Shown: piece by piece, positions 33,729-64,000 of the stretch
Position numbering within the stretch: position 1 is the first letter of the stretch
Layout of the letters: each line of letters begins with the position of its first letter
Assembly (NCBI RefSeq): GCF_008831285.2
Contig: NC_045140.1
Span: 4,505,528-4,569,527 of the forward strand
From: Nymphaea colorata
Taxonomy: Eukaryota; Streptophyta; Magnoliopsida; Nymphaeales; Nymphaeaceae
DNA: 64,000 nt
Reading direction: 5' to 3'
Position numbers and translations under genes: made by a program
The notes under the pieces: generated by a model
Seen by the model: only the letters and a program-made list of their open reading frames with translations
Databases searched by the model: none
What the model was told of the DNA's origin: nothing

Positions 33729-34060
33729 TAGTGTTTCTCAAATCATCTTGACTTGATGATTATTGTCAAAAGAATTCGTTGAAGAAAGAAGATCAGAAAA
33801 AGATCTGACCACACTTTTCTTCTATTCTATAGGAATGGGTGCCAGAATTTCTAAAAAAGACCACAAAAGAATCGCCTGAGGGATCGGGTCGTCGTTCTCC
33901 TTGACATGCTTTCCAAGAACATCTCTTCACTCAGTCGCTTCACTCTTCTTAATATATGGGGGCAAGCACTTCCTGTTACAGATCTAACCTTTGTTCCAAA
34001 GAACAGCAAAAGCAGGAAGAAAGAGTTGAGATCAGAGGGAAGGAAGGAAGAATGTTTAAG

Positions 34061-35101
34061 ATGGTGGAAGACGACGAGGTGGATATCGTGATCGCAGCAC
34101 TCAACCAGGACCTCGGATTCTTGGAAGAATGGCGATCCTTGATTTCGCGATTTCATATCATAATCGTCAAAGATCCTGAACTTGATTCTGGTCTCCAGAT
34201 TCCCCCAGATTTCCCGAGTCTGTCTGTCTACACCCGATCCGACATGGAGGCGCGAATAGGCCCCGAATCACTCTCCTTGCTTCGGTTCACTGGCTTCTCT
34301 ACTCGGTACTATGGGTACCTCCTGTCTAAGCGGCGGTACGTCGTATCCATAGATGCTGATTGCGTACCGCTCAAGGACAATCTTGGCCGTCCGATCGATA
34401 TCGTGAGACAACACTTGGCAAATCTGACGACACCTGCCACTCCTCTCTTTTTCAATACTCTCTACGACCCATATGCCAAGGGGTCGGATTTCGTTCGTGG
34501 GTATCCTTTCGGTCTACGGTGCGGTGTGAATTGTGCGGTATCTTGCGGGCTTTGGCTCAACATACCAGACTTTGATGCATCTATTTTGAAGTCCGGGAAG
34601 CGCAATGATAGACTTGTAGATGCGGTGCTGACGGTACCCAAGGGTACCATGCTTCCATTGAGCGGTGTGAATGTTGCATTTGACCGGGAATTGATCGGAC
34701 CGGCTTTGTTCTCCGGGTTGATATTGGCTGGAGAAGGGAAGGTCCGACATGAGACGGTTGAAGATCTATGGTGTGGGATGTGTGTGAAGGTGGTATGCGA
34801 TCACTTGGGGTATGGTATCAAGAGCGGTATGCCATACGTACAAAGAGGTGGCGATGGCGAAACTGAGCAGGAGATCCAGATGGAGCGTACCATGGAAGGT
34901 ACCAGCCTCCTTGAGGTGGCGGTTCCATTCTTCCAAACCATGAGGTTGCCTCAGTCCGCGGTGACCGCAGAAGAATGCATTGTGGAGATGGCAAAACTGG
35001 TCAGAGAGGAGCTCGGACGCGCTGACCCGAGCTTTGCTCGAGCCGCGGATGCCATGGAGGAGTGGGTGCGCCTGTGGAGGTCTATGCATACCAAGCAGTG
35101 A
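34061..35101 (+). CDS. RGP5: Reversibly glycosylated polypeptide / UDP-arabinopyranose mutase-like protein (RGP5 type)
   Basis: GT75-family protein. Family enzymes interconvert UDP-arabinopyranose and UDP-arabinofuranose at the cytosol/Golgi surface for wall polysaccharides. The start at 34061 has a good context (AAGATGG) and gives 346 residues, the usual family length. In-frame ATGs at 34052 and 33956 would add 3 or 35 residues. Family blocks occur in order: VDIVIAALN (8-16), the metal-binding region VSIDADC (95-101), [20 protein letters not shown] (127-146), RGYPFGLR (146-153), [11 protein letters not shown] (162-172), AGEGKVRHETVEDLWCGMC and DHLGYG. The arginine-containing FVRGYPFGLR segment corresponds to the family's glycosylation site region. 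The acidic triad is DAD (98-100) instead of DDD. The gene is uninterrupted, with no introns, and ends EEWVRLWRSMHTKQ. It is the only full-length RGP in the array. Confidence 0.92.
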   Translation: MVEDDEVDIVIAALNQDLGFLEEWRSLISRFHIIIVKDPELDSGLQIPPDFPSLSVYTRSDMEARIGPESLSLLRFTGFSTRYYGYLLSKRRYVVSIDADCVPLKDNLGRPIDIVRQHLANLTTPATPLFFNTLYDPYAKGSDFVRGYPFGLRCGVNCAVSCGLWLNIPDFDASILKSGKRNDRLVDAVLTVPKGTMLPLSGVNVAFDRELIGPALFSGLILAGEGKVRHETVEDLWCGMCVKVVCDHLGYGIKSGMPYVQRGGDGETEQEIQMERTMEGTSLLEVAVPFFQTMRLPQSAVTAEECIVEMAKLVREELGRADPSFARAADAMEEWVRLWRSMHTKQ

Positions 35102-35700
35102 AGTTGGGTACTATTTGGTACCAATTCTTTTGATTAGTATAGTTGCTTAGATGATAATGGTGCATATAGTTGAAGGGGCCTTACTTCTATCGCAATTTTA
35201 TGGATCGGACCGGACATTTGGTCCTGCCGTGCAATTCAAGAATGTAACAAGTCTTTTTTGGTGTTTCTGTTAGGGATTTAAAAGAGTCGGGCTTAGATCT
35301 GATCCAGAAATTGCTAAGTCAAGTTAAATTTATTCCCAATTTTGCAATGTCATTGTATTCAGATTTTATTCAGTTCCACATTTGATTCAGATAAGAACCT
35401 AAATTTGAAAGAAATTTGTAGGCCAAACACTTCATTTCAATGAATCATATTTTCTTTTGCAAACTTGAAGTTGTGAATTTAAAGTTAGATTCGAATCAGA
35501 TTTGGATGGAGAGTTCGGATTCAAATTCAAATATGTTAACATCCGATAAATTGGATAATCCAATTCATTGACATCCGAAGTAAATTGTCAACTAAGTGTG
35601 ATAAATGCTCAACGTGACGAGATCCAAAAAAAGAGCATGCTTCCCCTGTTCCTGGCATCTCAAGAACAGGATGAACAAAGAGGACTTTGGGACACAGGCT
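35102..35700 (+). repeat. RGP 3' flank block, copy 1
   Basis: Sequence following the RGP stop (AGTTGGGTACTATTTGGTAC, then GGATCGGACCGGACATTTGG and TAGGGATTTAAA) recurs behind three truncated RGP copies at 40597, 49513 and 62632. It shows that duplication included non-coding downstream DNA. Confidence 0.85.
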
Positions 35701-36300
35701 GGAATTGGCGATTAGCCCTGCAAATACCCCTTTGGGATGTGAGCAGGGCTAATGCCCACCCAAAAAATATCAAAATCACCCTCAAAGGGGTGTTTTTTTT
35801 TGTAAGAAAAGGGGGCCTGCGTCGTTGTAGGCCCCAGCTGGGTGCTGGGACTACCCGTGTGGTAGTGCGCTAAAGCTATTGCGTAGCACGACTTGCGATC
35901 ACACGACTTTGCATCACGCGTCTGCGTGTCGCGGGACATGTGAACTATTTTTTTAAGCATATAATGTTAGTTTTTTTTGAAAGCATAAAAATTCATTTTG
36001 TTTGTTACAAATGGGTGGTCGACTCCATTTTGAGCTACTCCGAACTCGCTCCAAATCCGATTTTGGTTCAGTCGATTGTCGACTTGTTCGAGCGTGTGAC
36101 TTGGGTTTAAAAACCCATTTTGGAGTGAGAAATAAGTTTTTAAAACAAAGGGACGGTCATGTTGTCGTTTTGAACTCGAGTCGAATTTCAGGTTTGAAAC
36201 ACTTGATTTGGATCTGGACTACGGCTTTGGACTAATTTAAGTCCAAAAATTGGGTTTTGTGTTTTGATAAAAGAGCTTATCATTTCAGAAAAATTTAGGG

Positions 36301-36346
<46 letters not shown>

Positions 36347-36700
36347 GTCATAGAAACAACATATTATAGTAATAGGATCAGAATTTTGGTTTATACCTTA
36401 CACCCAACTAAGGCTGGGCACCGAGGTGGGCTGCCGGCAAGTACCTGGTACCCAGCCCGACTTGGGCCCGGACCCCAAAAAAAGGCACCAGGCAGACCCG
36501 ATAAATGTTTTTAATATTTATTTAATTAATTAAATATATAAATATAATATTTTATTGCAATTAATTATATTTTATACATTATTTTATATTAAAAATATAT
36601 TTTTAATTTAATCGGGCTATGCCCGGGTTTCATGTGTCGGCCCGGCCTGACGCCTGGGATGACAGCCAAGGTCCAAGGCTGTACCAGTGTTTAGTGTGAT
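35700..36700. repeat. Dispersed 1-kb repeat E, copy 1
   Basis: Collinear with 43146-44230. The left part has an 11-bp inverted repeat ATTAGCCCTGC (35711-35721) / GCAGGGCTAAT (35743-35753). Next come GGGGGCCTGCGTCGTTG and a CG-rich patch. A TA microsatellite (36308-36343) and a CCCGACTTGGGCCC-type patch (about 36457-36470) follow. No coding sequence. It may be a non-autonomous transposon. Confidence 0.8.
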
Positions 36701-37091
36701 TTCAATATATGTCAGCTACTACAACACACTCCTATGAAGATATTAAGCGCAGCTAACAGTCACCATGTAGAAGAACTGACATATAGAATGAGGTAAGGGA
36801 TCCTTAGCCAACAGTCCATCTCAGGGAACCTAAACTAACAGTCCACCCCAAGATGAGGGATCAGCACCATCTCTCCCTCATCTCCACCCAGAACCAGCCT
36901 TTCCACCACCATTACTGTTACCAATATCAGGATCTAAGGTCCATGCTATCACTTTAAAACTAAGAATTTGGGGTCCAATGGAAACTGTAGGAGGAGGGGT
37001 TCCACTTCAAAGCCATGGATCAGAAAAATCGTCGGTTATCTCAAACCACCATGGATCTCAGATGCATAGTAAACAAGCATTGGCTTACGGG

Positions 37092-37269
37092 CAGTGGCGA
37101 AGCTAGAAATTTCTTATTAAGGGGCGCTCTAAGTATAAATTTCAAACTTGAATGGGCATTCACATGTAAAAAATGAAAAATTAATGAGGCTTTTATACAT
37201 AAATAATGTAAGCTTATTGGTCTGGTGTGGGCAATTGCCCACTCCAGCCACAATGTGGCTCCGCCACTG
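37092..37269. mobile_element. hAT-type MITE, 178 bp, with 8-bp target site duplication
   Basis: Begins CAGTGGCGAAGC and ends GCTCCGCCACTG, an inverted terminal repeat with one mismatch. It is flanked on both sides by CTTACGGG (37084-37091 and 37270-37277). An 8-bp duplication with CAG-starting termini is the hallmark of hAT insertion. The inside holds a palindromic GTGGGCAATTGCCCAC and no coding sequence. Confidence 0.9.
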
Positions 37270-37379
37270 CTTACGGGAGCTGATTGAGTCCCTAAAACGT
37301 CTTTGTATCGTCAACGCATTCATAAAATTAACTATGTATACTATTTCGACATGTGCCGGTTAAAATTATACTATCGTCT

Positions 37380-38047: not shown

Positions 38048-39355
38048 CTAATCTAAATAATAAAGTCCATCTATGAATATGAAGGATCCCATGTCCTTGT
38101 CCAAGAGAGAAATAAAGACATCAACATCTCCAATGCTAGTGAAGGAAGGCAGGATATGCAAGAACCCTTCTACTCTCGAATACAAAGGTACAAAGAGGTG
38201 AGGAGGGTTTGTACCAAAGTCCATGTCATAGAAGGGGATTCTCAACCAGGAGGACACTTCCAAGTCGGGGCTCAACACCACCACTTCCTCATACGCACTC
38301 GGCACCAGCCCTTCCATCTTTTCCTTGGAGCTTGAGAAGTCGACGAATGACTTGAAGTAGTCGTCATCGACTCGAGCCACTGCATCATGTATGAGCCTAG
38401 CTGCATGCCCCACTGGCTTGGACAAGAGGTCTTTCACCGTAGAGCGAGGCCAAGCCCACAACACCACATTCCCCAAGTAGCTCATGGGCACAGTAGGTTT
38501 CCTCATTCTAAAGCGACCGTTCACTGAAATTCTTACTTTTGTAGTCAACTCCCCTTCTAGATTCCTGACACGGGTGATATTTCTCCAAAGGTGGGCAGTA
38601 AGGCACTCAAACGTAGTATAAGGCTTATCACAAGGATTGTCACCAGAGACCTTGGACTTGAGTTTCTCTAAAAATGCAGAAGGTATGTGTGCCCTTTCCA
38701 TCACGATAGTGTGTTGTAGCTCTGGGTGCTTGGCCTTTCCTAGACAGGCCGTATACTCAATCTCGCTATGTTCAAACTGAAAGAAAGGAGGGTTGCGAGG
38801 GATAAAGATGGAGCGGTCATGCAGTGGGAGACTTTGAACAGGGAGGCCGTCTGGCACCGTTTGGCCCCATGCTACGAAGAATTGGCTGACTGCAAGCCCA
38901 TCTGCGACTGCGTGGTGTGCAGTGAAGCCCACCACCATGGAACCACAAGTAAACCTGGTGATCTGCACCTGAGCCAACTCCTCTATGCCCGTGGTATCTG
39001 GCTGCATGTCAAGGTAATATGGAGATGGATTGTCGATCGAGCTACCGAGAGGGGAGTCAGAGTTGGCTTCGATGAAGCGCATTCCCTCGTCATTGAGAAG
39101 GATGCACTGGTGGCCATTGTCATTGAAAATAAGGCGGCCGGCGAACTCTCTGTACTCAGCAAGGACCCGACGGAGCCCTTGCTCGATGACTTCATTTGAT
39201 GGGTTGGGTGGTCTGTAGGCAAACAAGATGCCAACATGAATCTGAAATGTGACCGTATCGAAGGGGCTTAGAGGCATCAAGACGTCGGTAGGAGGCTGGA
39301 TTGGGGTCTGATAGCTTGGCTTGAGGAGCCTTGAGCTGTTTCTATTGATCTTCAT
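38048..39355 (-). CDS. BAHD acyltransferase, agmatine coumaroyltransferase-like (intact copy)
   Basis: Single-exon enzyme of 435 residues from the start encoding MKINRNSSRLLKP. An in-frame ATG three codons upstream (39364) exists, but the MKIN start is the one conserved in the sister copies. BAHD enzymes move acyl groups from CoA thioesters to alcohols or amines. Overall similarity is to the agmatine/putrescine/tryptamine hydroxycinnamoyltransferase group, cytosolic enzymes that make phenolamides. The catalytic HxxxD is present as HHAVAD (H148, D152). The family DFGWG motif appears as DFGTN (379-383) in PFYDMDFGTNPPHLF. Other group features are ILLNDEG, SYLGNVVLWAWP, SSWLRIPFYDMD and a C-terminal GLYYLD. 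No stops or shifts were found. Acceptor specificity cannot be read from sequence. It is the only intact BAHD in the array. Confidence 0.92.
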   Translation of the reverse strand: MKINRNSSRLLKPSYQTPIQPPTDVLMPLSPFDTVTFQIHVGILFAYRPPNPSNEVIEQGLRRVLAEYREFAGRLIFNDNGHQCILLNDEGMRFIEANSDSPLGSSIDNPSPYYLDMQPDTTGIEELAQVQITRFTCGSMVVGFTAHHAVADGLAVSQFFVAWGQTVPDGLPVQSLPLHDRSIFIPRNPPFFQFEHSEIEYTACLGKAKHPELQHTIVMERAHIPSAFLEKLKSKVSGDNPCDKPYTTFECLTAHLWRNITRVRNLEGELTTKVRISVNGRFRMRKPTVPMSYLGNVVLWAWPRSTVKDLLSKPVGHAARLIHDAVARVDDDYFKSFVDFSSSKEKMEGLVPSAYEEVVVLSPDLEVSSWLRIPFYDMDFGTNPPHLFVPLYSRVEGFLHILPSFTSIGDVDVFISLLDKDMGSFIFIDGLYYLD

Positions 39356-39364
39356 TTTCTGCAA

Positions 39365-39943
39365 CTTTTCCTTTTTCTTTAGTATGTTGCCTCCGACCTA
39401 ATGATGGCAGGGAGGAAGACGTGTTATATATAAACTACGCGAATGGGCCCTTGCATCAGTCCACCTAATAAATATAAATGGAGAGTGAGTTGTTGAGCTG
39501 CTTGTGCACACGAGGCAAGCTGGAGCTCGCCTGGTGAAGTTCAAATGAAAGCCACAAAAAGGATATTAAAGTTCATAAAAATATTACAAAAACATGCCAC
39601 TGATGATTAAGAAATAGGAAAGACACATTTCGAGTCAAATTTAAATGATTCGAGCTAGCTCATGTATCTCGAACTCCACATTTTTGACTCGAGCATCAAC
39701 TCAACCTCATGCTTGACTCTTTTAAACAAGTCAAGGTTGCATTAGAGTCGAGCCCGAGTTAACTTATTGTACATACTTATTTAAGGCTGATTACATGTCT
39801 GCGAGGACCTACAGTTTGGTGTGAGCTCAATATATGTCAGCCAGTCACCATTTAGAAGAACCGATATACATAGAAGAGGTAGGTGAATAGTACTATTGGA
39901 AATTCCAAGCCATGGAAAGAGAACCTCAGCTAACAGTCCATCT
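39365..39943. repeat. Head-to-head spacer between BAHD and truncated RGP, copy 1
   Basis: Shared with 47791-48864 and 60901-61992. It comprises the BAHD promoter, a TCGAG-rich patch, GTGTGAGCTCAATA..TGTCAG, and GGAAATTCCAAG..ATG immediately before the RGP homology. It could act as a bidirectional promoter, but only for the BAHD side is there an intact gene. Confidence 0.75.
39424..39435 (-). promoter_or_regulatory. TATA box of the intact BAHD gene
   Basis: The minus strand reads GTTTATATATAACAC about 70-80 bp before the start codon. The sister copies have shorter versions, TTTATAAC near 47860 and TTTATAAAAC near 60970, at the matching place. Confidence 0.6.
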
Positions 39944-40596
39944 TGCACCCACTCCTCTATTTTTCAATACCCTCTACAACCCATATGCCAAGAGGTCGGA
40001 TTTCGTTCGTGGGTATCCTTTGGGTCTACGGTGCAGTATCTTGTGGACTTTGGCTCAACATACCGGACTTTGATGCATCTATTTTGAAGTCCGGGAAGCA
40101 CAATGATAGACTTGTAGATGCGGTAGAGACGGTACCCAAGGGTACCAATGCTTCCTTTGAGCAGTGTGAATGTTGCATTTGACCGGGAATTGATCGGACC
40201 GGCTTTGTTCTTTGGGTTGGTATTGGCTGGAGAAGAGAAGGTCCGACATGAGACAGTCGAAGATCTATGCTGTCGGATGTGTGTGAAAGTGGTAAGCGAT
40301 CACTTGGGGTACGGTATCAAGAGCGGTATTACGTACGAAGGGGTGGCGATGGTAAAACTGAGCAGGAGATCCAGATGGAGCGTACCATGGAAGGTACCAG
40401 CCTCCTTGAGGTGGCGGTTCCATTCTTCCAATCAGTGAGGTTGCCTCAGTCTGCGGTGACCGCAGAAGAATGCTTTGTGGAGATGGCAAAACTGGTCAGA
40501 GAGGAGCTCGGACGTGCTGACCCGAGCTTTGCTCGAGCCGCAGAGGACATGGAGGAGTGGGTACGGGTGTGGAGGTCTATGCATACCAAGCAGTGA
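39944..40596 (+). pseudogene. Truncated RGP pseudogene, copy 2
   Basis: Homologous to the 3' two thirds of the intact RGP, starting at the codons for ATPLFFNT. The first about 125 residues, including the metal-binding motif, are missing. A 14-nt deletion near 40031-40034 removes the codons between LRC and AVSCGLW and shifts the frame. An extra A near 40147 shifts it again, and there is a further small deletion near 40335. The end EEWVRVWRSMHTKQ and the stop are kept. Confidence 0.9.
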
Positions 40597-43145: not shown

Positions 43146-43851
43146 TGGGATTGGCCATTAGTCCTACAAATACCTCGGAGTGTGGGCAGGGCTAATGTCC
43201 ACACAAAAAATACCAAAACCGCCCCTTAAGGGGCAGTTTTCTTGCAAGAAAAGGGGGCCTGCGTCGTTGCATGCCCCAGCTGGGTGCTGTTGCGTGCCAG
43301 GTGCAACAGCGGCCGATGCTAGGAAAATGCATGCGGTAGCGCGCTACAACTATCACGTAGCGCGACTCGTGATCACGCGACTTTGCGTCACATGACTGCG
43401 CGTAGCGGGACATGCAAACTATTTTTTTTTTAAATCTAATTTTTGTTTAATTTATTTAAAAAGCATATAAAATTAGTTTTTTTTGAAAGCATAAAAATTC
43501 ATTTTTTTTGTTACAAATGGGTGGTTGACTCCATTTTGAGCGACTCCGAACTCGCTTTAAATCCGATTTTGGTTCAGTCAGTTGTCGACCCGTTCAAACG
43601 TGCGACTTGAGTTTAAGAACATGTTTTGGCATGAGAAATGAGTTTTTAAAACGAAGAGAAATTTCTGTACACGCACAACACTCAAATTCCGCACAACACT
43701 CAAATTCCGTCATTTTGTACTAGAGTCAAATTTCAGGTTTGAAACGCTTGCTTTGGATCTGGAGTCAAATTTCAGGTTTGAAACGCTTGCTTTGGATCTG
43801 GCCTGCAGCTTTAGACTAATTTAGATAAAAAAATTTAGGGTGATTACTGTA

Positions 43852-44447: not shown

Positions 44448-44744
44448 TATGGTCCATGCTCTGGTCGATGAAGTGCATGCCCTCGTCATTGAGAATGATG
44501 CACTGGTGGCCGTTGTCATTGAAAATAAGGCGGCCGGCGAAATCTCTGCACTCGGCAAGAAGTCCCCTTGTTCAATGACTACATTTGATGGGTTGGGTGG
44601 TTTGAAGGCATACAAGAAGCTAACATGGGTCTGAAATATGACAGTATCAAAGGGGCTCAGAGGGATCAAGGCATCAGTAGGAGGGTGGGTTGGGGTATTA
44701 TAGGTTGGCTTGAGCAGCCTTGAGCTCCTTCTATTTATCTTCAT
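44448..44744 (-). pseudogene. BAHD 5' fragment pseudogene
   Basis: Begins MKINRRSSRLLKPTYNTP, like the BAHD genes, and follows the family to VVIEQG. A deletion then shifts the frame. Similarity in shifted frame continues to about the codons for LLNDEG and stops. About 300 bp in total remain; no catalytic motif is present. Confidence 0.88.
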
Positions 44745-46330
44745 TTTTTGCTATTTCTTTTCCTTGTTCTTCTTATGCTGCCTCCGACCGAGTGACCGCC
44801 TCTCACCTCCCGGATCGTCCACTTTTTCTCATCTAAGATTGAGGGACAGAGTAAGTATGTAGGATCCAAAATCCCAGATTGTCATGTCCAAAATAACGAT
44901 GGTGACTTGTCATTTAGGTATGAGATATCAGTGGTCACCATCACTTGCCTATTACCTACTCTTCAAAGCTAGGAATGTACAACTGGGAAGCCGAGGTCGG
45001 CTCGACTCTGAATTTATGAGGCACATTCAAGCTCAACTTATTAAACCAAGTTTGTAATCTAGCTCGACAATTGGACTTGAGTTTTAACTCAATCTCGAGC
45101 TCGACTTTTTTATTAGATGAGCGAGCTCAAGTCGAGTTTACATTGGTGAGTTAGAGTCGAGCTGGAGTGGGCTCAACTCATTGTACATCTCTATTCAAAG
45201 CTAATTAAATGTCTGAGCTAAGAGTCCATCTCAAGATAAAGACAACACCATCTCTCCTTCATCTCCACCCTGCACCAGCCTTTCCAGTTCCTAAAAATGT
45301 GGTCCTCCACATCATTAATGTTATCATTAATATCATTTTGTTTCTGATGCACATTATATAGAAACTAAACAAACACAATAAGGGCATGCCTGTTTGCTTA
45401 ATTCCCCTTGTAAGAGATCTAAAAGCAGTACCATATGAATTATATTGTTTAAATAAGTGATGAATATCAACAGTGAACAGCAGTGTAGGTGGATCCAAAG
45501 GTCCAATGGAGAAGGAAGGAGGAGGGGTTCCATTTCAAAGCCATGGATCAGATAAATCCTTAGTTATCTTGATTCTCATATCAACATAGATTTCATATCC
45601 ATCGTAAACAAGCTTGGCCTATGGGAGCAGATGAAGTCCCTATATACATTATGGGTCCACAGCAAGGGGCTAAGTCGTCTTTGTATCGTCAACATATTAA
45701 TATATATATATATATAAGGACAATTGGATGGTGACTCCAGCTTTTTAAAATGTCCCAGCCATCTAATCTGAAATGTTTGATCGCCATGATGGGGAGTTAA
45801 GGCAAAAAAAAAAAAAGTAACAGACATTTTTGTCATCTATTATTAGTTCAAACATTTTTTCTTTCCTTTCCTTTCAATTGGATGGTGCTTGTTAGTTAGT
45901 TGGAGGACTCTCAAGAGTCAGAGTTATCATTCACTGTATATCCCTTCCCAAATGGTTGACTAACCAATGGTACTGGTTTGAATTAACGTACGTGGTTGAA
46001 GGTTTCGGTAGGATGCCATTGTAGATGTTGATAGGGTTCACTTTCGTATTAAAAAGACCATTCTGCAAAATCTTTATCTACAAACATATATATCTATGGG
46101 GAGAGAATAAGAGAAAATGCTGGCTTTGTATGTGCAGTTGTGAAGTGGATTGCCCATCGGACCCATTGGTTATTTGATCCGATGGTTGTCCATTTCCCAC
46201 ACACAATCCCTTCCATTCTCTCTCATACTAAAAGGAAAAATCGTGTTTGGATTGTCAGCATGCATGGCATCTTCAAAAATTGTTAGCAGAAACAAAAGGT
46301 TTAGTTGGGGACATTGTTTTCTTAGAACCA
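44745..46330. other. Array spacer DNA, no gene recognised
   Basis: Contains a TCGAG-rich patch (45000-45200) and a block at 45200-45560 resembling 36810-37030 and 44280-44400 (ACACCATCTCTCC..CATCTCCACC). A TA run follows near 45701-45715. No coding sequence was recognised. Confidence 0.5.
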
Positions 46331-46501
46331 CACAGGAAATCATATGATCACCACAATTCACTGACATTGTCCATAAAAAAACAACATGGGGACTACCTAA
46401 ACAAGTGAAAGTAGAAAGGATGAAAGAGAACATGATGTTTAACAACATGCACTAGGTATGACATATAAGTACTCCTAATCTAAATAATACAGTCCATCTA
46501 T

Positions 46502-47790
46502 GAAGGATCCCATGTCCTTGTCTAAAGAGAAACAAAGACATCAACATCTCCAATGCCAGTGAAGGAAGACACAATATGCAAGAACCCTTCTACTCTCGAA
46601 TACGAAGGTACAAAGAGGTGAGGGGGGTTTGTACCAAAGTCCATGAGATAGAAGGGGATTCTCAACCAGGAGGACACTTCCAAGTCGGGGCTCAACACCA
46701 CGTCTCCTGCATATGCGCTTGGCACCAGCCCTTCCATCTTTTCCTCTGAGCTTGAGAAGTCGATGAATGACCTGAAGTAGTCGTCATCGACTCGAGCAAC
46801 TGCATCATGTATGAGCCTAGCTGCATTGCCCACTGGCTTGGACAAGAGGTCTTTCACCTTAGAGTGAGGCCAAGCCCACAACACCACATTGCCCAAGTAG
46901 CTCATGGGCACAATAGGATTCCTCATTCTAAAGCGACCGTTCAATGGAATCCTTACTGTTGTAGTCAACTCCTCTTCTAGTTTCCTGACACGGGTGACCT
47001 TTCTCCAAAGGTGGGCAGTAAGGCACTCAAACTTAGTGTAAGGCTTATCACAAGGATTGTCACCAGAGGCCTTGGACTTGAGGTTGGTTAAAAATTCAGA
47101 AGAGAAGTGTGCCCTTTCCATGACAATAGTGTGTTGTAGCTCTGGGTGTTTGGCAGTTCGATGATGGCTTGTATACTCAATCTCACTGTGTTCAAACTGA
47201 AAGTGAACTGAAAGTGAGGAGGGTTGCGAGGGACGAAGATGGAGCGGTCATGCAGGGGGAGTGGTAGAACAGGGATGCTGTTGCGCACAGTTTGGCCCCA
47301 TGCTATGAGGAAATGGCTGAAAGACAGCGCATCCACAACTGCATGGTGGACGGTGCAGCCCACCACCATGGAACCACAAGCAAACCTGGTGAGCTGCACC
47401 TGAAACAACTCCTCCTCTCTTCCTGTAATGTGTGGGTGCAAGTCGTGGTAGCATGGAGATGGCTTGTCCATCAAGCTACCGAGAGGGGAGCCGGAGGTAG
47501 CTTCGATCAAGCGAATGCCCTCATCATTGAGAAGGATGCTTTGGCAGCCATTGCCATCGAAAATGAGGCGGCCAGCATACTCTCTGTACTCGGCAAGAAG
47601 CCGGCGGAGCCCTTGTTCAATGACTTCATTTGATGGGTTGGGAGGTCTGTAGGCATACAATAATCCAACATGGATCTGATATGTGACGGTATCCAAGGGG
47701 CTTAGAGGGATCAGGGCATCTGTACCATGGTGGGTTGGGGGTATGATAGGTTGGCTTGAGCAGCCTTGAGCTCCCTCTATTGATCTTCAT
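46502..47790 (-). pseudogene. BAHD acyltransferase pseudogene, copy 2
   Basis: Nearly full length, starting MKINRGSSRLLKPTY. Three lesions were found. One extra C in a C-run near 47745 shifts the frame about 15 codons in. An 11-bp tandem duplication (ACTGAAAGTGA, 47196-47217) shifts it around residue 195. A 1-nt loss near 46522 creates a TAG that removes the last about 17 residues. The HxxxD motif reads HHAVVD and the DFGTN region (YLMDFGTNPPHLF) is preserved. The pattern fits recent loss of function. Confidence 0.92.
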
Positions 47791-48864
47791 TTTTCTTGTT
47801 TATTTTCCTTGTTCTTCTTATGCTGCCTCCGACCTAGTGATGGCAGGGAGGAAGATGTGTTATAAACTACGTGAATTGGCCCTTGTATCAGTACACCTAG
47901 TAAATGTGAATGGACAGTGAGTTGTGTGAGCTGCTTGGTGCACGCAAGACATATAAGTAACAAAAAAAAGTGGGAGTTGGTGTAATCTAAAAATTTAAGA
48001 GAAATTTTCTCGTTAGCCTTTTATTATTTTTTTTTGTTTTCTTTCTTATCTCTACAAAGTTCTTTTTTTCTATTAACTTGAGGCATTTTGATCATTAAGC
48101 ATATTGGCACACAAAAAAATTGTGCACCAGACACGGCATGTAACCAGATTCAATGTGAATGAGTGTATGTAGAATCTAATATCCCAGAAAGTCATGTCTA
48201 AAATAATGATGATGACTATCATATACCTATCATATGTGCATGACATATTAGTGGTGACGCCTATTTTCTGCTGTTCAAAGCAAGGAATGTACAACAAGCC
48301 AGCTGAGCTCAAGCTCGACTCGAGTCACGTATTGTTCAGCTCGTGCACAAATCTCACTCGACTCGAGCTTTATGAGGCAAGTTTGAGCTTGTCTCTTTCG
48401 CTATATATATATATAGGTTAAAATGAAAGCCACAAAAAGGATATTAAATTTATAAAGATATTACCAAAACATGCCACTAATGATTAAGAAATAGAAAAGA
48501 CACATTTCAAGTCAAATTTAAATGAGTCGAGCTCATGTTTCTCGAACTCCACATGTTTAACTCGACCATCAACTCAACCTCAAGTTTCAACTCTTTTGAA
48601 CAAGTCATGCTTACATAGGCAAGTTCGAGTCGAGCCCGAATTAACTTATTGTACATCCTTATTTAAAGCTGATTATATGTCCGGAAGGCCATACAGCTTG
48701 GTGTGAGCTCAATACATATCAGCCAGTACAACACACTCCTATGACATTAATGGGCAGCTAACAGTCACCATTTAGAAGAACAGTTATACATAGAAAGAGG
48801 TAGGTGAATAATACTCTTGGAAATTCCAAGTCATGGAAAGAGAACCTCACCTAACAGTCCATCT
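47791..48864. repeat. Head-to-head spacer between BAHD and truncated RGP, copy 2
   Basis: Longer version of the 39365-39943 spacer, matching 60901-61992 (shared AAAAAAGTGGGAGTTGGTGT, GCATATTGGCACACAAAAAA and TCGAG-rich patches). The intact unit lacks the middle part, so copies 2 and 3 are closer relatives here. Confidence 0.75.
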
Positions 48865-49512
48865 TGCACCTACTCCCCTCTTTTTCAATACCCCTATGAC
48901 CCATATGCCAAGGGGTCGGATTTCGTTCGTGGGTATCCTTTCGGTCTACGGTGCGGTATCTTGTGGGCTTTGGCTCTACAAACCGAACTTTGATGCATCT
49001 ATTTTGAAGTCCGGGAAGTGCAACAATAGACTTGTAGATGCAGTAGTGATGGTACCCAAGGGTACCATGCTTCCTTTGAGCAGTGTGAATGTTGAGTTTG
49101 ACTGGGAATTGATCAGACCAGCTTTGTTCTCCGGGTTGGTATTGGCTGGAGATGGGAAGGTGAGAATGAGACGGTTGAAGATCTATGGTGTGGGATGTGT
49201 GTGAAAATGGTATGTGATCACTTGGGGTAAGGTATCAAGAGCGGTACGCCATATGTACAAAAGACATGGCAACGGTGAAACTGAGCAGGAGATCCAGATG
49301 GAGTGTACCATGGAAGGTACCAGCCTCCTCCAGGTGGCAGTTCCATTCTTCCAATCAGTGAGGTTGCCTCAGTCACCGCAGAAGAATGCTTTGTGGAGAT
49401 GGCAAAACTGGTGAGGGAGGAGCTCGGACGTGCTGACCCAAGCTTTGCTCGAGCCATGAATGCCATGGAGGAATGGGTGCGGGGGTGAAGGTTTATGCAT
49501 ACCAAGCAGTGA
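48865..49512 (+). pseudogene. Truncated RGP pseudogene, copy 3
   Basis: Starts at the same point of the RGP gene as copy 2 and shares its 14-nt deletion (near 48955). Further damage includes a small deletion near 48892, a shift near 49160-49165 (GGTGAGAATGAG for GGTCCGACATGAG), a lost Gly codon region near 49230 and a shift near 49375. The C-terminal REELGRADPSFARA is readable. Confidence 0.9.
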
Positions 49513-54010: not shown

Positions 54011-54109
54011 AAATAAAATAAATCCTTTCTTCTCATGGACGTAGGCACAAAGGCAGAACCACATTAACTTTCTCTAGCCTTTATTCGTTGTCTTCGTTCA
54101 CTTTTCGTC

Positions 54110-55040: not shown

Positions 55041-55703
55041 CCGACACCTGCCACTCCTCTCTTTTTCAATACTCTCTACCACCCATATGCCAAGGGGTCT
55101 GATTTCGTTCGTGGGTATCCTTTCGGTCTACGTTCCGGTGTGAATTGTGCGGTATCTTGCGGGCTTTGGCTCAACATACCAGACTTTGATGCATCCATTT
55201 TGAAGTCCAGGAAGCGCAATGATAGACTTGTAGATGCGGTGGTGACGGTACCCAAGGGTACCATGCTTACATTGAGCGGTGTGAATGTTGCATTTGACTG
55301 GGAATTGATCGGACCGGCTTTGTTCTCCGGGTTGATATTGGCTGGAGAAGGGAAGGTCCGACATGAGACGGTTGAAGATCTATGGTGTGGGATGTGTGTG
55401 AAGGTGGTATGCGATCACTTGGGGTATGGTATCAAGAGTGGTATGCCATACTTACAAAGAGGTGGTGATGGCGAAACTGAGCAGGAGATCCAGATGGAGC
55501 GTACCATGGTAGGTACCAGCCTCCTCGAGGTGGTGGTTCCATTCTTCCAATCAGTGAGGTTGCCTCAGTTCGCGGTGACTGCAGAAGAATGCTTTGTGGA
55601 GATGGCAAAACTGGTCAGAGAGGAGCTCGGACGCGCTGACCCGAGCTTTGCTCGAGCCGCGGATGCCATGGAGGAGTGGGTGCGGGTGTGGTGGTCAACA
55701 TGA
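55041..55703 (+). pseudogene. Truncated RGP, copy 4, still open
   Basis: Corresponds to the intact RGP from the codons for TPATPLFFNT onward and has no stop or frameshift. It ends after EEWVRVWWST because homology breaks off near 55695. The frame is open upstream to an ATG at 54903, giving a 266-residue chimera with an unrelated hydrophobic N-terminus (MIYFLTLFCFLFIG). It lacks the metal-binding motif and first third of the family, so UDP-arabinose mutase activity is not expected. It is closer to the intact RGP than the other truncated copies (no 14-nt deletion, fewer changes). It is not followed by the usual RGP 3' flank. Confidence 0.85.
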
Positions 55704-56894: not shown

Positions 56895-57005
56895 CTCTAT
56901 CTCTCTCTAAAATCTTCTTTTCTCTTTCTAAAATCTTTTTCTCTCCCTAAAATCTTCTTCTTTCTCTCCCTAAAATCTTCTTCTTCTTCTCTCTCTCTCT
57001 CTTTC
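56895..57005. repeat. CT-rich minisatellite
   Basis: About five imperfect copies of CTCTCTCTAAAATCTTCTT, ending in a CT run. Confidence 0.85.
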
Positions 57006-57029
57006 AGTTAATACCTTCCTATCACGAGC

Positions 57030-57033
<4 letters not shown>

Positions 57034-57094
<61 letters not shown>

Positions 57095-57095
57095 A
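57034..57095. repeat. TA microsatellite
   Basis: The longest TA run of the window, about 60 bp, with one TT interruption near its right end. Confidence 0.95.
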
Positions 57096-58680
57096 CACGT
57101 TTATTGATACATATTTCTCTCTTTTTAAAATTTTTTTCTTTAGTGATTTTTAAAACCTCTTTCTCTTTCTCCTCATTCCTCTTGGATTAAAATCTTTCTT
57201 TTATTTCTTCCATTCTTTTGAATATTAATTTTCCAAGGTTTAATATTTGAAATTTTCCTATATCAACTTCATCAAGACTAAAACTCAAGTAATGACTCGG
57301 TATTGAAATCATACTTGATTGTCTACAACATCATTTCACTTTCATTTTTTTCTCTCTTGATGAGAATATCTAACATAAGTGTGTAAACAAATCAAGATGT
57401 ATGTGGTATCTTTAGATGAATGATATGGTAAGAATGAATAATTTGTTTTCAATCATAAAGAGTCAATGCATTGACATTCACTTGTACAATTCACAAATGA
57501 TCACAAACACCTCTGTAAAAGAACTTAATCAAGATGAAATGAAACTCTAGTTATGAGTAATCAAATTAGAGTAAAATCTTAAATCTATTTAAATTCTTAA
57601 GAGAACATTAAATCGACTTCGAAAAGTGATCTTTAAAATACCCATATTATCTTCCAAAGGTTTTCAAATAATATTTGTAAAGATTTCTTAATTCAAAATC
57701 TCCCAAATCAAAATTGTTTATACTCTCAAATATTTCTTCAAAACTTTCTCAAAAATTTGAAACATCAAATATTCAACATTTTTTTTTCAAACACCATACT
57801 GTATTTAGAAAGAAAAAGAGGTTTAACTGAAAATAAAATGCATAAAAAAAAAGCATAACCCTTAGATTGGTTGCCCCCGATAAAGGCGACTGGAACGATC
57901 GATTCTCGTATTGTTGGGCGAGTCCCTTTCACTCTCATTTAAAAAAATAAAATTTTATATTTATGAAGAACTCCAAAAATCAAAGTAAATTTTGGGAATG
58001 CAAACAAGGGGTCAGCGCCATCTCTTCCTTATCTCCATCATTAATGTTATTAATTTCAATATCTTTCCCATATACATTATATAACAACTAAACCAACACA
58101 ATAAGGACATGCATGCTTGCTTCCCTGTTTGGAGATGTAAAATCGGTACTATACGAAATCAGTACTATATGAAATCTAGTGTTTAAACAAGTAATGAATA
58201 TCAACACTAGACAGAAGTACTCATATCTAGAGGGGCACCTATGTATATAAAATTAAATTTTTAAAGATGCCTGTATAAAAATAAAAAAACTTAAGAAGCT
58301 GCACATACCATACTAGATCTGGCTGTGCCTGGTCCAATGGAGATGGATTGAGGAGGGGCCAAATGGTGCGCTCCGGCGTAGATGTCGTGGACCCCTCATC
58401 GCTTTTCTGTCATTGTCTTGTGAACGGCAAGGGCCATGACATTGTTTTTTCAAATTTTTATCTTTTTAGGTATAATTTTGATTAAAAGGGCAGTATAGCA
58501 TTTTAATAGTCCATTTTAATGTTCTTTGTAAAGTGATGGCTGTTTGAGGGTTAATCGCACATTTTTAGGCAGTTTTTTGTATGTTTTTCAAGTAATTCCC
58601 ATTTTAATGTTTATGAACTGCCTTCAGGGTAAAGCCCACATATGACAATACCCTTATGTGTCCAAGGTTCTTACTCATTT

Positions 58681-59600
58681 CATGCCATGGAATAAGAACC
58701 TTTCAGCCATGTTAGCATCCAATAATTGAGTTCAAAAGTCAAGACATAACTAAGTAGGTCCTGGATTTCTACTTCTCAAACTTAACAACTTCTCGTTATG
58801 CACTTTTTTTAACAACATATATAAGCGTGGGTGATTTGCTGATTTCAAGGAGGCTAGTTGCCTTGCACCAGCTTGTTGATTTTATCCCATTCAATGGTGT
58901 CGTGGTAATTTAAGCTTGGGTTTTGCTCAAGTATATACCACCATGGTGGTAGTTGATTAAGCCTCAGTGTTACATTGTATGCATAGCTCCATTGATGAGC
59001 ATAATTTAAATGCCTTTTCATAATGAGAGCAAAATTAAACAAGTAGAAGGACATAGTTGTGTTCATTTGCCTACAAATTTATGTTGATGCTAGAGCTGGT
59101 GCTAGTACTGATGCTAGTGCTTCTCTGACATAGCAGTTCGATGTGGCCAGCTGAATTGGGACAAAGCTGATCTTTTAAAATGTGCACCAAACTAAACTAG
59201 CACCAGCCAAAAAGTTTATATGTAAATACAAATAAATAAGACCACTAAACATTTAAATAACTATATAATATTCACTCACCCACACCACTTTTTTTTTGAA
59301 ACATTGTTGTATCCGCACTTGGATTAGCATCCGTGCCAATACCTGCACCCTATGCCCATGTGATACAGCTACAAATTTAGTTTAATTGGCTTTACCATGT
59401 CAATCCATGATCATGTTAAAATTTCATTCTGAATTGAAACATATGATAACCACACAAGAAAGATACCAAATCATATGATCACCACAATTCACTGACGTTG
59501 TCCATAGCAACAACATGGGGACTACCTAAACAAGTGAAAGTAGAAAGGGTGAAAGGGAGCATTAAGTTTAAAAACATACACTAGGTTTGGCATATAAGTA
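58681..59600. repeat. BAHD 3' flank block, copy 3
   Basis: Collinear with 37380-38047, including the shared GATCATGT.AAAATT and ATATGATAACCACACAAGAAAG segments next to the BAHD stop codon. Confidence 0.75.
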
Positions 59601-60900
59601 CTAATCTAAATAATACAGTCCATCTATGAAGGATCTCATGTCCTTCTCAAACAGAGAAACGAAGGCATCAACATCTCCATTGCCACTGAAGGAAGGCACG
59701 ATATGCAAGAACCCTTCTACTCTCTCATATGAAGGTACAAAGAGGCGAGGGGGGTTTGTACCAAAGTCCATGTCATAGAAGGGGATATTCAACCAGGAGG
59801 ACACTTCCAAGTCAGGGCTCAACACGTCTCCCCCATACGCGCTCGGCACCAGCCCTTCCATCTTTTCCTTTGAGCTTGAGAAGTCAATGAATGACCTGAA
59901 GTAGTCGCCATCAACTTGAGCCACTGCATCATGTATGAGCCTAGCTGCATGCCGCACTGGCTTGGACAGGAGGCCTTTCACCTTAGAGTGAGGCCAAGCC
60001 CAGCACCACATTGCCCAAGTAGCTCATGGGCACAGTAGGATTCCTCATTCTAAAGCGACCGTTCACTGCAATCCTTACTTTTGTGGTCAACTCCTCTTCT
60101 AGATTCCTGACACGGGTGATCTTCCTCCATAGGTGGGCTGTAAGGCACTCAAAGGTAGTGTAAGGCCTATGACAAGGATTGTCACCAGAGACCTTGGACT
60201 TGAGTTTCTCTAAAAATGCAGAAGGGAAGTGTGCCCTTTCCATCACAATAGTGTATTGTAGCTCTGGGTGCTTGGGCTTTGGTTGACGGGCCATATACTC
60301 AATCTAATTATGTTCAAACTGAAAGACAGAAGGGTTGCGAGGGATGAAGATGGTGCGGTCATGCAGTGGGAGTGGTAGAACAGGGATGCTGTTGCGCACA
60401 GTATGGCCCCATGCTATGAAGAAACGGCTGAGAGACTGTGGATCCAAGACTGCATGGTGGATGGTGCAGCCCACCACCAAGGAACCACAAGCAAACCTGG
60501 TGAGCTGCACCTGAAACAACTCCTCCTCTATTCCTGTAATGTGTGGGTGCAAGTCGAGGTAGTACGGAGATGGCTTGTCCATCAAGCTGCCAAGAGGAGA
60601 GCCGGAGGTAGCTTCGACAAAGCGAATGCCCTCGTCATTGAGAAGGATGCACTGGTGGCCATTGTCATCGAAAATGAGGCGGCCAGCGAACTCTCTGTAC
60701 TCGGCAAGAAGCCGGCGCAGCCCTTGTTCAATGACTTCATTTGATGGGTTGGGAGGTCTGTAGGCATACAAGAATCCAACATGGATCTGATATGTGACGG
60801 TATCAAAGGGGCTCAGAGGGATTAAGGCATCAGTAGGAGGGAGGGTTGGGGTAGGATAGGTTGGCTTGAGCAGCCTTGTGCTCCCTCTATTGATCTTCAT
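59601..60900 (-). pseudogene. BAHD acyltransferase pseudogene, copy 3
   Basis: Full-length relative starting MKINRGSTRLLKPTY at 60900. Two lesions were seen. A nonsense codon lies after FQFEHN near 60304 (GAG in the intact gene is TAG here). A 2-nt deletion near 60000 turns VVLWAWPHS into VVLGLASL and a stop. Otherwise the gene is well preserved: HHAVLD for HxxxD, FYDMDFGTNPPRLF, and an intact C-terminus SFIDGLYYLD. The few lesions suggest recent inactivation, or possible sequence errors to exclude. Confidence 0.92.
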
Positions 60901-61992
60901 TTTTCGTTGTCTCTTTTTCTTGTTCTTCTTATGCTGCCTCCGACCTAGTGATGGCAGGGAGGAAGGTGTTTTATAAACTACGTGAATGGGCCCTTGTATC
61001 AGTCCACCCAATAAATGTAAACGGAGCGTGAGCTGCTTGGTGCATGCAAGACATATAAGTAAAAAAAAAAGTGGGAGTTGGTGTACTTTGAAAATGCTTT
61101 AAGAGAAATTTTCTAGTTAGTCTTTTAATTTTTTTTTAGGTTTCATTTTTATCTCTACAAGAAGTTCTTTTCTTTTGTTAACTTGATGCCTTTTGATTAT
61201 TAAGCATATTGGCACACAAAAAAATACTGCACCAGACACGGCATGTAACCAACTTCAATGTGAATGGGTGTATGTAGGATCTAATTTCCCAGAGCGTCAT
61301 GTCTTAAATAATGATGATGACCTATCATATACCTATCATATATGGATGACATATTAGTGGTGATGCCTATTGTCTGCTGTTCAAAGCAAGGAATGTACAA
61401 TGGGCAAGCTCAGGTCAAGCTCAACTTGATCACATATTGTTGAGCTCGTGCACAACTCTAACTCACTCGAGCTTTATGAGGCAAGTTTGAGCTCGTATGT
61501 TTAACTATATTACCAAAACATTAAAATTCATAAAAATATTACCAAAACATGCCACTAATGACTAAGAAATAGGAAAGGCACATTTCGAGTCAAATTTAAA
61601 TGAGTCGAGTTCATGTATCTCGATCTCCACATTTTTAACTCGAGCATCAACTCAACCTCAAGCTCGACTCTTTTAAACAAGTCAAGCTTGCATAGGCAAG
61701 TTCAAGTTGAGCCCAAGTTAACTTATTGTACATCCTTATTTAAAGCTGAAGTTAAATTGTACATCCTTATTTAAAGCTGATTATATGTCTGGGAGGCCAT
61801 ACAGTTGGGTGTGAGCTCAATATATGTCCGCCAGTACAACATATATGTCCGCCAGTACAACACACTCCTATGACATTAACAGGCAGCTAACAGTCACCAT
61901 CTAGAAGAACTGATATACGTAGAAAGAGGTAGGTGAGTAGTACTCTTGGAAATTCCAAGTCATGAAAAGAGAACCTCCTCTAACAGTCCATC
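60901..61992. repeat. Head-to-head spacer between BAHD and truncated RGP, copy 3
   Basis: Matches 47791-48864. It also contains two small tandem duplications: 21 bp ATATATGTCCGCCAGTACAA with a final C (about 61822-61863), and GTACATCCTTATTTAAAGCT twice (61720-61780). Confidence 0.8.
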
Positions 61993-62631
61993 TTGCACCC
62001 ACTCCTCTCTTTCTCATTACCCCCTACGACCCATATGCCAAGGGGTCGGATTTTGTTCATGGGTATTCTTTAGCTCTATGGTGTGGTGTGAATTGTGAAG
62101 TATCTTGTGGGCTTTGGCTCAACATACTGGACTGTGATGCATCCATTTTGAAGTCCGGGAAGCACAATGATAGACTTGACGGTACCCAAGGATACCGTTC
62201 TTCGTTTGAGCAGTGTGAATGTTGCATTTGACCGGGAATTGATCGGACCGGCTTTGTTCTCCAAGGGAAGGTGAGACATGAGACGGTTGAAGATCTATGG
62301 TGTGGGATGTGTGTGAAAGTGGTATGTGATCACTTGGGGTATGGTATCAAGAGCGGTATGCCATACATACAAAAGACGTGCCGACGGTGAAACTGAGCAA
62401 GAGATCCAGATGGAGCGTACCATGGAAGGTACCAGCCTCCTCGAGGTGGGAGTTTTATTCTTCCAATCAGTGACGTTGCCTCAGTCCGCAGTCACTGCAG
62501 AAGAACGCTTTGAGGATATGGCAAAACTGGTGAGAGAGGAGCTCGGACGCACTGACCCGAGCTTTGCTCGAACCGCGGATGCCAAGGAGGAGTGCTTGTG
62601 GGTGCAAAGTTTTATGCATACCAAGCAGTGA
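61993..62631 (+). pseudogene. Truncated RGP pseudogene, copy 5
   Basis: Starts at the same RGP position as copies 2 and 3 but lacks their shared 14-nt deletion. It has its own lesions: 14 nt lost near 62179 (after GACTTG), about 20 nt lost near 62260 (codons for GLILAGE) and smaller changes near 62370. The C-terminal half reads LVREELGRTDPSFARTADA, and the stop position is conserved. Confidence 0.9.
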
Positions 62632-63510
62632 AGTTGGGTATGATTTGGTACCAACTTTTTTGATTAATATAGTTGCTAAAATGATAATGGTGCATATGGT
62701 TGAAGGGGCTTTACTTGTATTGCAAGTGCATGGATCGGACCGGATATTTGGTCTTGCCGTTCAATTCAAGAATGTGACAAGTCTTTTTTGGTGTTTCTGT
62801 TAGGGATTTAAAGGAGTCGGGCTTAGACCCGATCCAGGAATTGCTAATTCCAACCAAATGGCATTATACATACTTGGGTTTGGACCCAGATTAAGAGTTT
62901 GATGCACTTTTTTCGTGTTAAATTTATTTCCAATTTTGCAAATGTCATTGTGTTCAGATTTTATTCAGTTTCACATTTGATTCAGTTATAAACCCAAATT
63001 TTAATGAAATTTGTATTGCAAACCCTTTAACTTGCAATGAATCTTATTTTCTTTTGCAAACCGGAGGTTGTGAATTTAAAGTTAGAGACGAATCAGATTT
63101 GGATGGAGAATTCGGATTCAAATTCATATATAATATACTTTTCTTCATTTAAATTTGAACTCAAATATGTGAACATCCGATAAATTGGATAGTCCAATTC
63201 ATTGACATCCAAAGTAAATTGTCAGCTACGTGTGAAAACTGCTCAACGTCACGAGATCCAAAAAGAGATCAGTGGGACAAAATGAACAAAGACGACTTTG
63301 GGACAGGTTGTGTTTGCATCGACCAGTGGAACAAATATGTCCGCTGTTTGATTAATTTCCCATCTGTGGAATGTGCACTTTTCCTGGACCGTGAATCAAA
63401 CATCCTCTTAGTACCAATTGAAGAAGGGATTCTCTTATCTTTGTGCCTTATGACGAAAGGACAGTTTTACGTGCTCAACAATATGACTCACAAATAAAAG
63501 TGAGTAGCCT
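62632..63510 (+). repeat. RGP 3' flank block, copy 5
   Basis: Collinear with 49513-50400, including GACTTTGGGACAGGTTGTGT and ATGTGCACTTTTCCTGGACC. Confidence 0.85.
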
Positions 63511-63679
63511 TTCGTGGTGTCTAGAAGTTGGACAGAGCCTGAGCCATGAAAAAGACCTCGGGCTGGCCCCGGCCCAAGTCCAAATCTGGCAGGCCCTGGG
63601 GTATATTTTTAATTAAAATTTGTCCAGGCCAGCCTGCCAAAATGGGACATGGGCTGTCCGGGCCCAATGCCCACCCTTA

Positions 63680-64000
63680 GTGGTGTCACACGTAACACAA
63701 GAAGATGCAAGAGCAAGTGAACAAGTGTCTCTGTGCGGAACAAACACCACCACGGAACAGTCTATTCCCAGTTTGGAATGCTGTGAAGTGGATTCCACCT
63801 CAAATTGACAGACTTGTTGAAGGAACCAGTACTCCGGCTCCCTAATTACCAAGTCATTGAAGGCCAAAAGAGATGCTTCAGACACAACCCTTATAGTGGA
63901 ATGCTACTAGAGAATGACCATCCCATTGCCTACGAGCGATGAAAACTAAGCAACATCGAACAACATTACTCAGTGCATGAGAAGGAGATGAATGCCATAA
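63680..64000 (+). mobile_element. Ty3/gypsy RNase H scrap, copy 2 (cut by window edge)
   Basis: Collinear with 50520-50905, reading ENDHPIAYER, a stop, then KLSNIEQHYSVHEKEMNAI up to the last base. It was carried along by the segmental duplication. Confidence 0.75.

What the first reader, a model, noticed from the sequence alone, without database searches (positions are those of the whole stretch)
33900..64000. Tandem array interleaving RGP and BAHD acyltransferase genes
Five RGP copies and four BAHD copies alternate over 30 kb. Only one of each is intact. Three times a minus-strand BAHD faces a plus-strand truncated RGP across a related spacer. Flanking non-coding blocks are shared, so whole segments were duplicated. 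This is a compact record of gene birth and death in two unrelated families moving together.
Basis: seen in the sequence. Interest (0 to 1): 0.7.

Follow-up and report, generated by a model that had tools for sequence, protein, structure and literature searches.

The report
Tandem duplicate array carrying gene fragments
A plant chromosome segment holding the end of one gene and the whole of its neighbour was copied in tandem several times; most of the extra copies are dead, so this is a clear but ordinary record of local DNA duplication rather than a new system.

Summary
In detail: five RGP (GT75) and four BAHD copies lie in 33956-62631, one intact copy of each inside the window. The cause is simpler than 'two families moving together'. 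One segment, [RGP 3' part - flank - ... - BAHD - upstream spacer], was tandemly duplicated to four units. R2, R3 and R5 share one junction (spacer fused to RGP at about codon 161) that a genome-wide pattern search finds three times, all in this array. They lack the RGP head from birth; R1 is whole because it is the left-edge copy. The last BAHD, B4, is intact, lies just outside the window and has no RGP upstream. R4 is a separate event: 655 bp of RGP coding sequence replaced 135 bp of spacer, with microhomology at both ends; a partial inverted duplicate of the array 3.5 Mb away keeps the empty site. BAHD relatives also cluster on C1, where no RGP match was listed, so RGP looks like a passenger. 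Part of the shared 'flank' is dispersed repeat. R2's substitution pattern and the BAHD root do not fit cleanly. New example of a known kind.

The parts
33956..35101 (+). R1: intact intronless RGP (GT75), 381 aa; left-edge copy of the array
   Evidence: R1-R0 dN/dS 0.06 (3' part) and 0.12 (full), dS near saturation
35102..35701 (+). F: RGP 3' flank, shared in order with units 2, 3 and 4
   Evidence: found only in this array among 40 scored of 1901 candidates
35700..36709 (+). X: block shared with 43146-44252; its 35961-36310 part is a dispersed genomic repeat
38048..39364 (-). B1: open BAHD acyltransferase (agmatine-coumaroyltransferase-like); mosaic relation to B4 and B2/B3
39365..39948 (.). 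U1/S2 spacer between B1 and R2, ending at the S2|R junction
39949..40596 (+). R2: 5'-truncated RGP pseudogene
44465..44795 (-). Bf: N-terminal BAHD fragment
46475..47800 (-). B2: BAHD pseudogene (frameshifts, stop)
47801..48871 (.). U2/S2 spacer between B2 and R3
48872..49512 (+). R3: 5'-truncated RGP pseudogene
55042..55697 (+). R4: internal 655-bp piece of RGP coding sequence (R1 34428-35082, 96.3%) inserted in spacer; replaces 135 bp, microhomology at both ends
59601..60911 (-). B3: BAHD pseudogene (stop, frameshift)
60912..61998 (.). U3/S2 spacer between B3 and R5
61999..62631 (+). R5: 5'-truncated RGP pseudogene; its unit continues past the window to intact BAHD B4 (69903-71204 in extended window coordinates)

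Best explanation
This is a four-unit tandem segmental duplication in a plant genome: [R1..B1][R2..B2][R3..B3][R5..B4]. An ancestral stretch held an intronless RGP(+), its 3' flank, spacer, a convergent BAHD(-) and the BAHD's upstream region. A first duplication had one breakpoint inside the RGP coding sequence (about codon 161) and the other upstream of the BAHD, creating the junction 'BAHD-upstream|headless RGP'. Later rounds copied that junction with its neighbours. So the whole RGP (R1) is at the left edge, the last BAHD (B4) has no RGP upstream, and R2, R3 and R5 share one truncation. Exchange between copies blurred the history (mosaic B1, probably R2). An 8-kb piece is shared, inverted, with C3:8.06 Mb, next to rearranged further array DNA; which locus is older was not tested. 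After those loci separated, 655 bp copied from RGP filled a break in the spacer of unit 3, replacing 135 bp (R4). Shown: collinearity, the shared junction, the left edge, the empty site, the mosaic pattern. Inferred: order of rounds, and unequal exchange or break repair as the engine. Only R1, B1, B4 and Lb2 (at 8.06 Mb) look usable as genes, with R0 outside the array.
For: Collinear blocks R-F-...-B-U-S2. One S2|R junction: 3 genome hits with 0 mismatches when up to 3 were allowed, all in the array, control pattern 0; a fourth copy with a 1-bp deletion at 8.06 Mb. R1 is full length like its paralogue R0. Upstream of B4, U pieces and S2 (72451-72617) run on into YZ (72844) with no RGP. The RGP tree pairs R5 with Rfrag (91) as the BAHD tree pairs B3 with Lb2 (100). 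dN/dS between R3, R5 and Rfrag is 0.78-0.82, near neutral. Locus 2 is collinear with window 53310-62320 and lacks R4. R4 shares 6 bp (CGACAC) and 3 bp (GTC) with the target at its ends. Locus1-locus2 K2P beside R4 is 0.042-0.044; R1-R4 is 0.038.
Against: R2 does not look like a freely drifting copy: dN/dS is 0.26 to R1, 0.36 to R3 and 0.41 to R5, and R1-R2 K2P (0.068) is half of F1-F2 (0.132); overwriting by R1 would explain it but was not tested. R2 and R3 share a 14-bp deletion that R5 lacks, R3 and R5 a 1-bp insertion that R2 lacks. The rooted BAHD ML tree prefers ((B1,B4),(B2,(B3,Lb2))) (90%) over the edge-copy order (B4,(B1...)), which is not rejected (AU p = 0.09). RGP tree supports are 42-92. 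B4's upstream region is interrupted by about 0.95 kb between U and S2. Spacer and R5 are 0.079-0.089 from locus 2, B3 and flanks 0.038-0.051. Two RGP breakpoints lie within about 10 bp (34428 and ~34437), unexplained.
Confidence: 0.85

Rival explanations
1. Assembly artefact: repeated or mis-joined contigs created the copies.
For: No reads are available here; tandem arrays are error-prone in assemblies (general knowledge).
Against: Copies differ by 4-15% K2P and carry their own indels; no N in 144 kb; the same S2|R junction occurs at a second locus 3.5 Mb away.
Confidence: 0.03
2. Transposon-mediated spread: the RGP/BAHD blocks were carried by mobile elements rather than by tandem duplication.
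For: X (35961-36310), 37092-37271 and the last ~250 bp of 54486-56400 match many genomic sites; BED/DUF659 and Pol_BBD remnants lie in the window.
Against: RGP fragments, F and the spacer ends were found only on C3, in the array or at its 8.06-Mb relative; the shared junction and the whole left-edge copy fit tandem duplication; R4's ends lie inside the coding sequence with microhomology. Element ends were not searched for systematically; only the flanks printed were read.
Confidence: 0.07
3. Independent insertions of RGP fragments beside each BAHD.
For: R4 is such an insertion.
Against: R2, R3 and R5 share one junction and the F flank downstream.
Confidence: 0.02
4. The pairing is a functional metabolic cluster: RGP/UAM makes UDP-Araf and the BAHD acylates it or its product.
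For: UDP-Araf made by UAM has been suggested as acceptor for BAHD feruloyl transfer in grasses (PMC5873385, passages); R1 is under constraint.
Against: R1 has DAD for the DDD motif and Arg where the C7 RGP has His; AtRGP5, OsUAM2 and HvUAM4 are reported without UAM or RGP activity (PMC9937993, passages), though that R1 belongs with them is recalled, not tested. B1's nearest solved structures are agmatine coumaroyltransferases. No B1-like match near the C7 and C8 RGP genes.
Confidence: 0.03

Closest known systems
Tandem/segmental duplication arrays with partial gene copies (unequal exchange or break-induced duplication)
   Same: Collinear units, one shared breakpoint junction, whole gene at the edge, pseudogenes inside, exchange between copies
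   Different: Two families in one unit, so they look interleaved; RGP is cut by the breakpoint
Templated insertion at a repaired double-strand break (microhomology-mediated end joining or template switching)
   Same: R4: ectopic copy of nearby sequence, deletion of target, short microhomology at both ends
   Different: 655 bp is long for such insertions (recalled; papers on the subject seen only as a listing)
BAHD agmatine coumaroyltransferase (PDB 7dtp, 7cys)
   Same: Full-length similarity of B1, E = 1.9e-114 and 2.8e-109
   Different: Substrate untested; B1 has DFGTN, 7dtp and 7cys DFGGG, HCT 4g22 DFGWG (alignments)
GT75 RGP / UDP-arabinopyranose mutase (PDB 8cid)
   Same: R1 full-length match, E = 2.7e-122
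   Different: R1 has DAD where 8cid has DDN and the C7/C8 genes DDD; intronless, while the C7/C8 genes match in four pieces

Membership tests
Tandem segmental duplication | Collinear coding and non-coding blocks in the same order and orientation | tested here: met
Tandem segmental duplication | Shared novel junction between units | tested here: met
   3 genome hits, all in the array; alignment
Tandem segmental duplication | Edge copies without the junction | tested here: met
   R1 full length; B4 upstream runs U-S2-YZ without RGP, but with ~0.95 kb extra between U and S2
Tandem segmental duplication | Gene trees of linked parts agree | tested here: inconclusive
   one split agrees (R5+Rfrag, B3+Lb2); position of B4 and R2 unresolved
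Templated insertion (R4) | Empty site in a related copy, target deletion, microhomology | tested here: met
GT75 RGP/UAM | Full-length PF03214 domain | tested here: met
   R1 504 bits, profile 2-341 of 342
GT75 RGP/UAM with mutase activity | DDD motif, metal-binding His, conserved Arg | tested here: not met
   Arg181 present; motif is D133-A134-D135 and the His position is Arg297 (roles from PMC9937993 passages)
BAHD acyltransferase | HXXXD motif and full-length PF02458 | tested here: met
   HAVAD in B1; 230 bits, profile 3-427 of 434
BAHD acyltransferase | DFGWG motif | tested here: not met
   B1 reads DFGTN; the ACTs 7dtp and 7cys also depart from it (DFGGG)
Plant biosynthetic gene cluster | Co-expression and a shared pathway | not testable with these tools
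   no expression data

The most novel reading that the evidence does not exclude
R1 and the retained BAHDs form a nascent functional cluster in which an RGP without the usual mutase residues and an ACT-like BAHD act in one arabinose- or amine-acylation route. Repeated breakage at one short site in the RGP gene (both the founding junction and R4 begin at about 34428-34438) multiplied the cluster.
Probability: 0.04. Interest if true: 0.55.

Novelty: new member of a known kind. Interest (0 to 1): 0.28.

Why it matters
It is a legible example of how a duplication breakpoint inside one gene turns it into a headless passenger while its neighbour is amplified, with an internal empty-site control for a later break-repair insertion. 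Gene counts in such arrays overstate gene birth: four of the five RGP copies in the window lack the gene's first 157-160 of 381 codons.

Tried and rejected
Intron hypothesis for the shared RGP truncation: rejected. The C7/C8 RGPs break at profile positions ~101, ~184 and ~242, not at ~121 where the copies start, and R1 and R0 are intronless. R4 as a relic of a truncated unit: rejected; it carries 9 bp of R1-type sequence left of the common junction and lies in a different spacer. All shared flank as unique duplicated DNA: rejected for X. An 8-bp microhomology (CACCTGCC) at the S2|R junction was considered, but an S copy that resembles the array spacers (loc2 42909) lacks it, so the exact joining base stays open. 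NCBIfam gave no match for R1 or B1. Withdrawn on checking: a dN/dS of 1.0 for B2-B3 was read in B2's broken frame; in B1's frame it is 0.62. The new R2 result made me lower the confidence of the best explanation from 0.88 to 0.85 and raise the transposon rival from 0.06 to 0.07.

Papers: RGP+BAHD+tandem+acyltransferase gave 1 paper (listing); agmatine coumaroyltransferase+tandem duplication+gene cluster gave 2 (listing); templated insertion in plants 20, 15 listed; UAM+BAHD+feruloyl 12, 11 listed; UAM+crystal structure 3; partial duplication and hitchhiking 0. Passages only were read of PMC9937993 and PMC5873385. No report of this array was seen in those listings, but the species is unknown. 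Dating: with a recalled rate of 6.5e-9 per site per year, K2P 0.04-0.15 would mean roughly 3-11 million years. One search ended with an error after most BAHD pairs had been printed; the missing pairs were not recomputed as K2P.
Full report
WHAT WAS CHECKED. The window is C3:4505528-4569527 of a 407.8-Mb genome in 783 contigs; that it is a plant is inferred from gene families and genome size, and the species is unknown. R1 (33956-35101) is a complete GT75 protein (PF03214, 504 bits; PDB 8cid, E = 2.7e-122). B1 (38048-39364) is a complete BAHD enzyme nearest to agmatine coumaroyltransferases 7dtp and 7cys.

BEYOND THE WINDOW. Reading 40 kb on each side shows that the window's right edge cuts the array. 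A second intact BAHD, B4 (69903-71204 in extended window coordinates), and remnants B5-B8 (to 80472) follow, and no RGP in those 40 kb. A full-length RGP, R0, lies 13.6-14.7 kb left of the window on the opposite strand (68% amino-acid identity). At C3:8.05-8.07 Mb (70 kb read) an inverted stretch matches window 53310-62320 over about 8 kb, with BAHD Lb2, the spacer and an RGP fragment; beyond it lie further BAHD and spacer blocks in another order. Lb2 has an open frame whose last residues differ from B1's.

ARCHITECTURE. Block painting gives units [R1-F-X-S-YZ-W-B1-U-S2] [R2-F-V-X2-X-..Bf..-B2-U-S2] [R3-F-..T..-W2-R4-W3-..-B3-U-S2] [R5-F-..V-T..-B4-U..]. The joint S2|R is the same in R2, R3 and R5. 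A 26-base pattern across it, with up to 3 mismatches allowed, hits the genome three times, all in the array, and the control pattern 0 times; the copy at 8.06 Mb differs by a 1-bp deletion. The left-edge RGP is whole. Upstream of B4, pieces of U and then S2 run on into YZ without RGP, with about 0.95 kb extra between U and S2; upstream of B5 U-S-YZ also runs on without RGP. This is what tandem duplication with one breakpoint inside RGP predicts. R2, R3 and R5 therefore lack codons 1 to ~160 from birth, including the DXD region; later indels and stops add to that.

HISTORY. K2P among R1-R5 and Rfrag is 0.038-0.129; B2-B3 0.099; B1-B4 0.090; B1-B2 0.144; F 0.070-0.132; spacers 0.114-0.138. RGP tree rooted on R0: (R5,Rfrag) 91, with R3 92, with R2 74, with R4 42, R1 outside; BAHD clade {B2,B3,B6,B8,Bf,Lb1,Lb2} 100. 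With a C1 BAHD as outgroup, ((B1,B4) 90,(B2,(B3,Lb2)) 100) is best; the edge-copy order (B4,(B1,(B2,(B3,Lb2)))) is not rejected (AU p = 0.090), (B2,((B1,B4),(B3,Lb2))) is (p = 0.0005). Mosaic: sites with B1=B4 against B2=B3=Lb2 number 44 in the first ~550 columns and 3 after; sites where B4 alone differs number 13 and 25 (max chi-square permutation p = 2e-4); 42 sites where B1 alone differs were not in that test. Half trees differ (B1+B4 83; B1+B2 84). Whether B1 or the B2/B3 lineage took the foreign part is open. Site patterns over the B-U-R stretch join locus 2 with unit 3 at 49 sites, against 5 and 4. Conflicts: R2/R3 share a 14-bp deletion, R3/R5 a 1-bp insertion, R5/Rfrag another 14-bp deletion.

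SELECTION. R1-R0 dN/dS is 0.06 over the 3' part and 0.12 over the full length (dS 1.6-2.1, near saturation). In R1's frame R3-R5, R3-Rfrag and R5-Rfrag give 0.81, 0.82 and 0.78, close to neutral. R2 gives 0.26 (to R1), 0.36 (R3), 0.41 (R5), 0.52 (Rfrag) and 0.24 (R4), lower than for free drift; R4 gives 0.44 to R1. Overwriting of R2 by R1 would explain this and R1-R2 K2P 0.068 against F1-F2 0.132, but was not tested. BAHD: B1-B4 0.36, B1-Lb2 0.35, B4-Lb2 0.34 among open copies; B2-B3 0.62, B3-Lb2 0.76.

R4. R4 is R1 34428-35082 at 96.3% without a gap, with no RGP flank. Locus 2 has the surrounding spacer at K2P 0.042-0.044 without R4; another RGP-free copy lies at 76277-77246. R4 replaced 135 bp of the locus-2-type sequence; CGACAC at the left and GTC at the right are common to donor and target. 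The simplest reading is a templated insertion during break repair after the two loci separated. Its left end lies within about 10 bp of the founding junction; no cause for that was found.

WHOLE GENOME. The RGP search gave 21 matches (19 of 19 candidates scored): R0, R1 and fragments on C3, and two genes matching in four pieces each on C7 and C8. The BAHD search gave 99 matches (96 of 119 scored); apart from C3 the closest are seven open copies on C1:16.297-16.392 Mb (57-64% identity), where no RGP match was listed. No B1-like match (E <= 1e-3) was found in the 40 kb read around each of the C7 and C8 genes. F occurs only in the array among scored candidates (40 of 1901); X 35961-36310 has 27 listed places on other contigs and 37092-37271 has copies at 95-98% on C7, C14, C2 and C10. 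The ends of the spacer were found only at the two C3 loci; its middle has weak matches on other contigs (19 of 19 scored).

FUNCTION. R1 keeps the Arg of VRGYPF (R181) but has DAD for DDD, and Arg297 where the C7 RGP has His; the PDB chains named transglycosylase, taken to be MtdL, also align a His there. Passages of PMC9937993 describe DDD, His287 and the Arg as functional elements and report no activity for AtRGP5, OsUAM2 and HvUAM4. A mutase role for R1 is doubtful. A joint RGP-BAHD pathway, suggested in principle for grass feruloylation (passages of PMC5873385), is not supported here.

VERDICT. Real, largely explained, a new example of a known kind.

Noticed in passing
6914-7803 (+): BED zinc finger followed by a DUF659 stretch in a second frame: remnant of a hAT-like transposase (label hAT recalled; Pfam hits).
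   Followed up: no
52083-52550 (+): Pol_BBD match just under its cut-off (26.1 v 27 bits), a copia-like retrotransposon remnant inside unit 3 ('copia' recalled).
   Followed up: no
37092-37271: About 180-bp dispersed repeat 95-98% identical to copies on C7, C14, C2 and C10, so probably a recent insertion beside B1.
   Followed up: partly
38048-39364 (-): B1 stands in a mosaic relation to its relatives: the 5' ~550 bp groups with B4, the rest with B2/B3.
   Followed up: yes
34428-34438: Both the founding junction of the array and the left end of R4 fall within about 10 bp of the RGP gene; coincidence or a breakage-prone site.
   Followed up: partly
39949-40596 (+): R2 has too few amino-acid changes for a free-drifting pseudogene and is closer to R1 than its 3' flank is; possible conversion by R1.
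   Followed up: partly
C1:16.297-16.392 Mb (L032-L034 are three pieces of it): Seven open ACT-like BAHD genes in a cluster on C1, 57-64% identical to B1.
   Followed up: partly
44465-45625: BAHD N-terminal fragment followed by pieces of spacer and YZ blocks: a shrunken extra BAHD unit inside unit 2.
   Followed up: partly
extended window 68407-68830 and 72422-72844 (L013): Two S-YZ blocks on either side of B4 are 96% identical.
   Followed up: no
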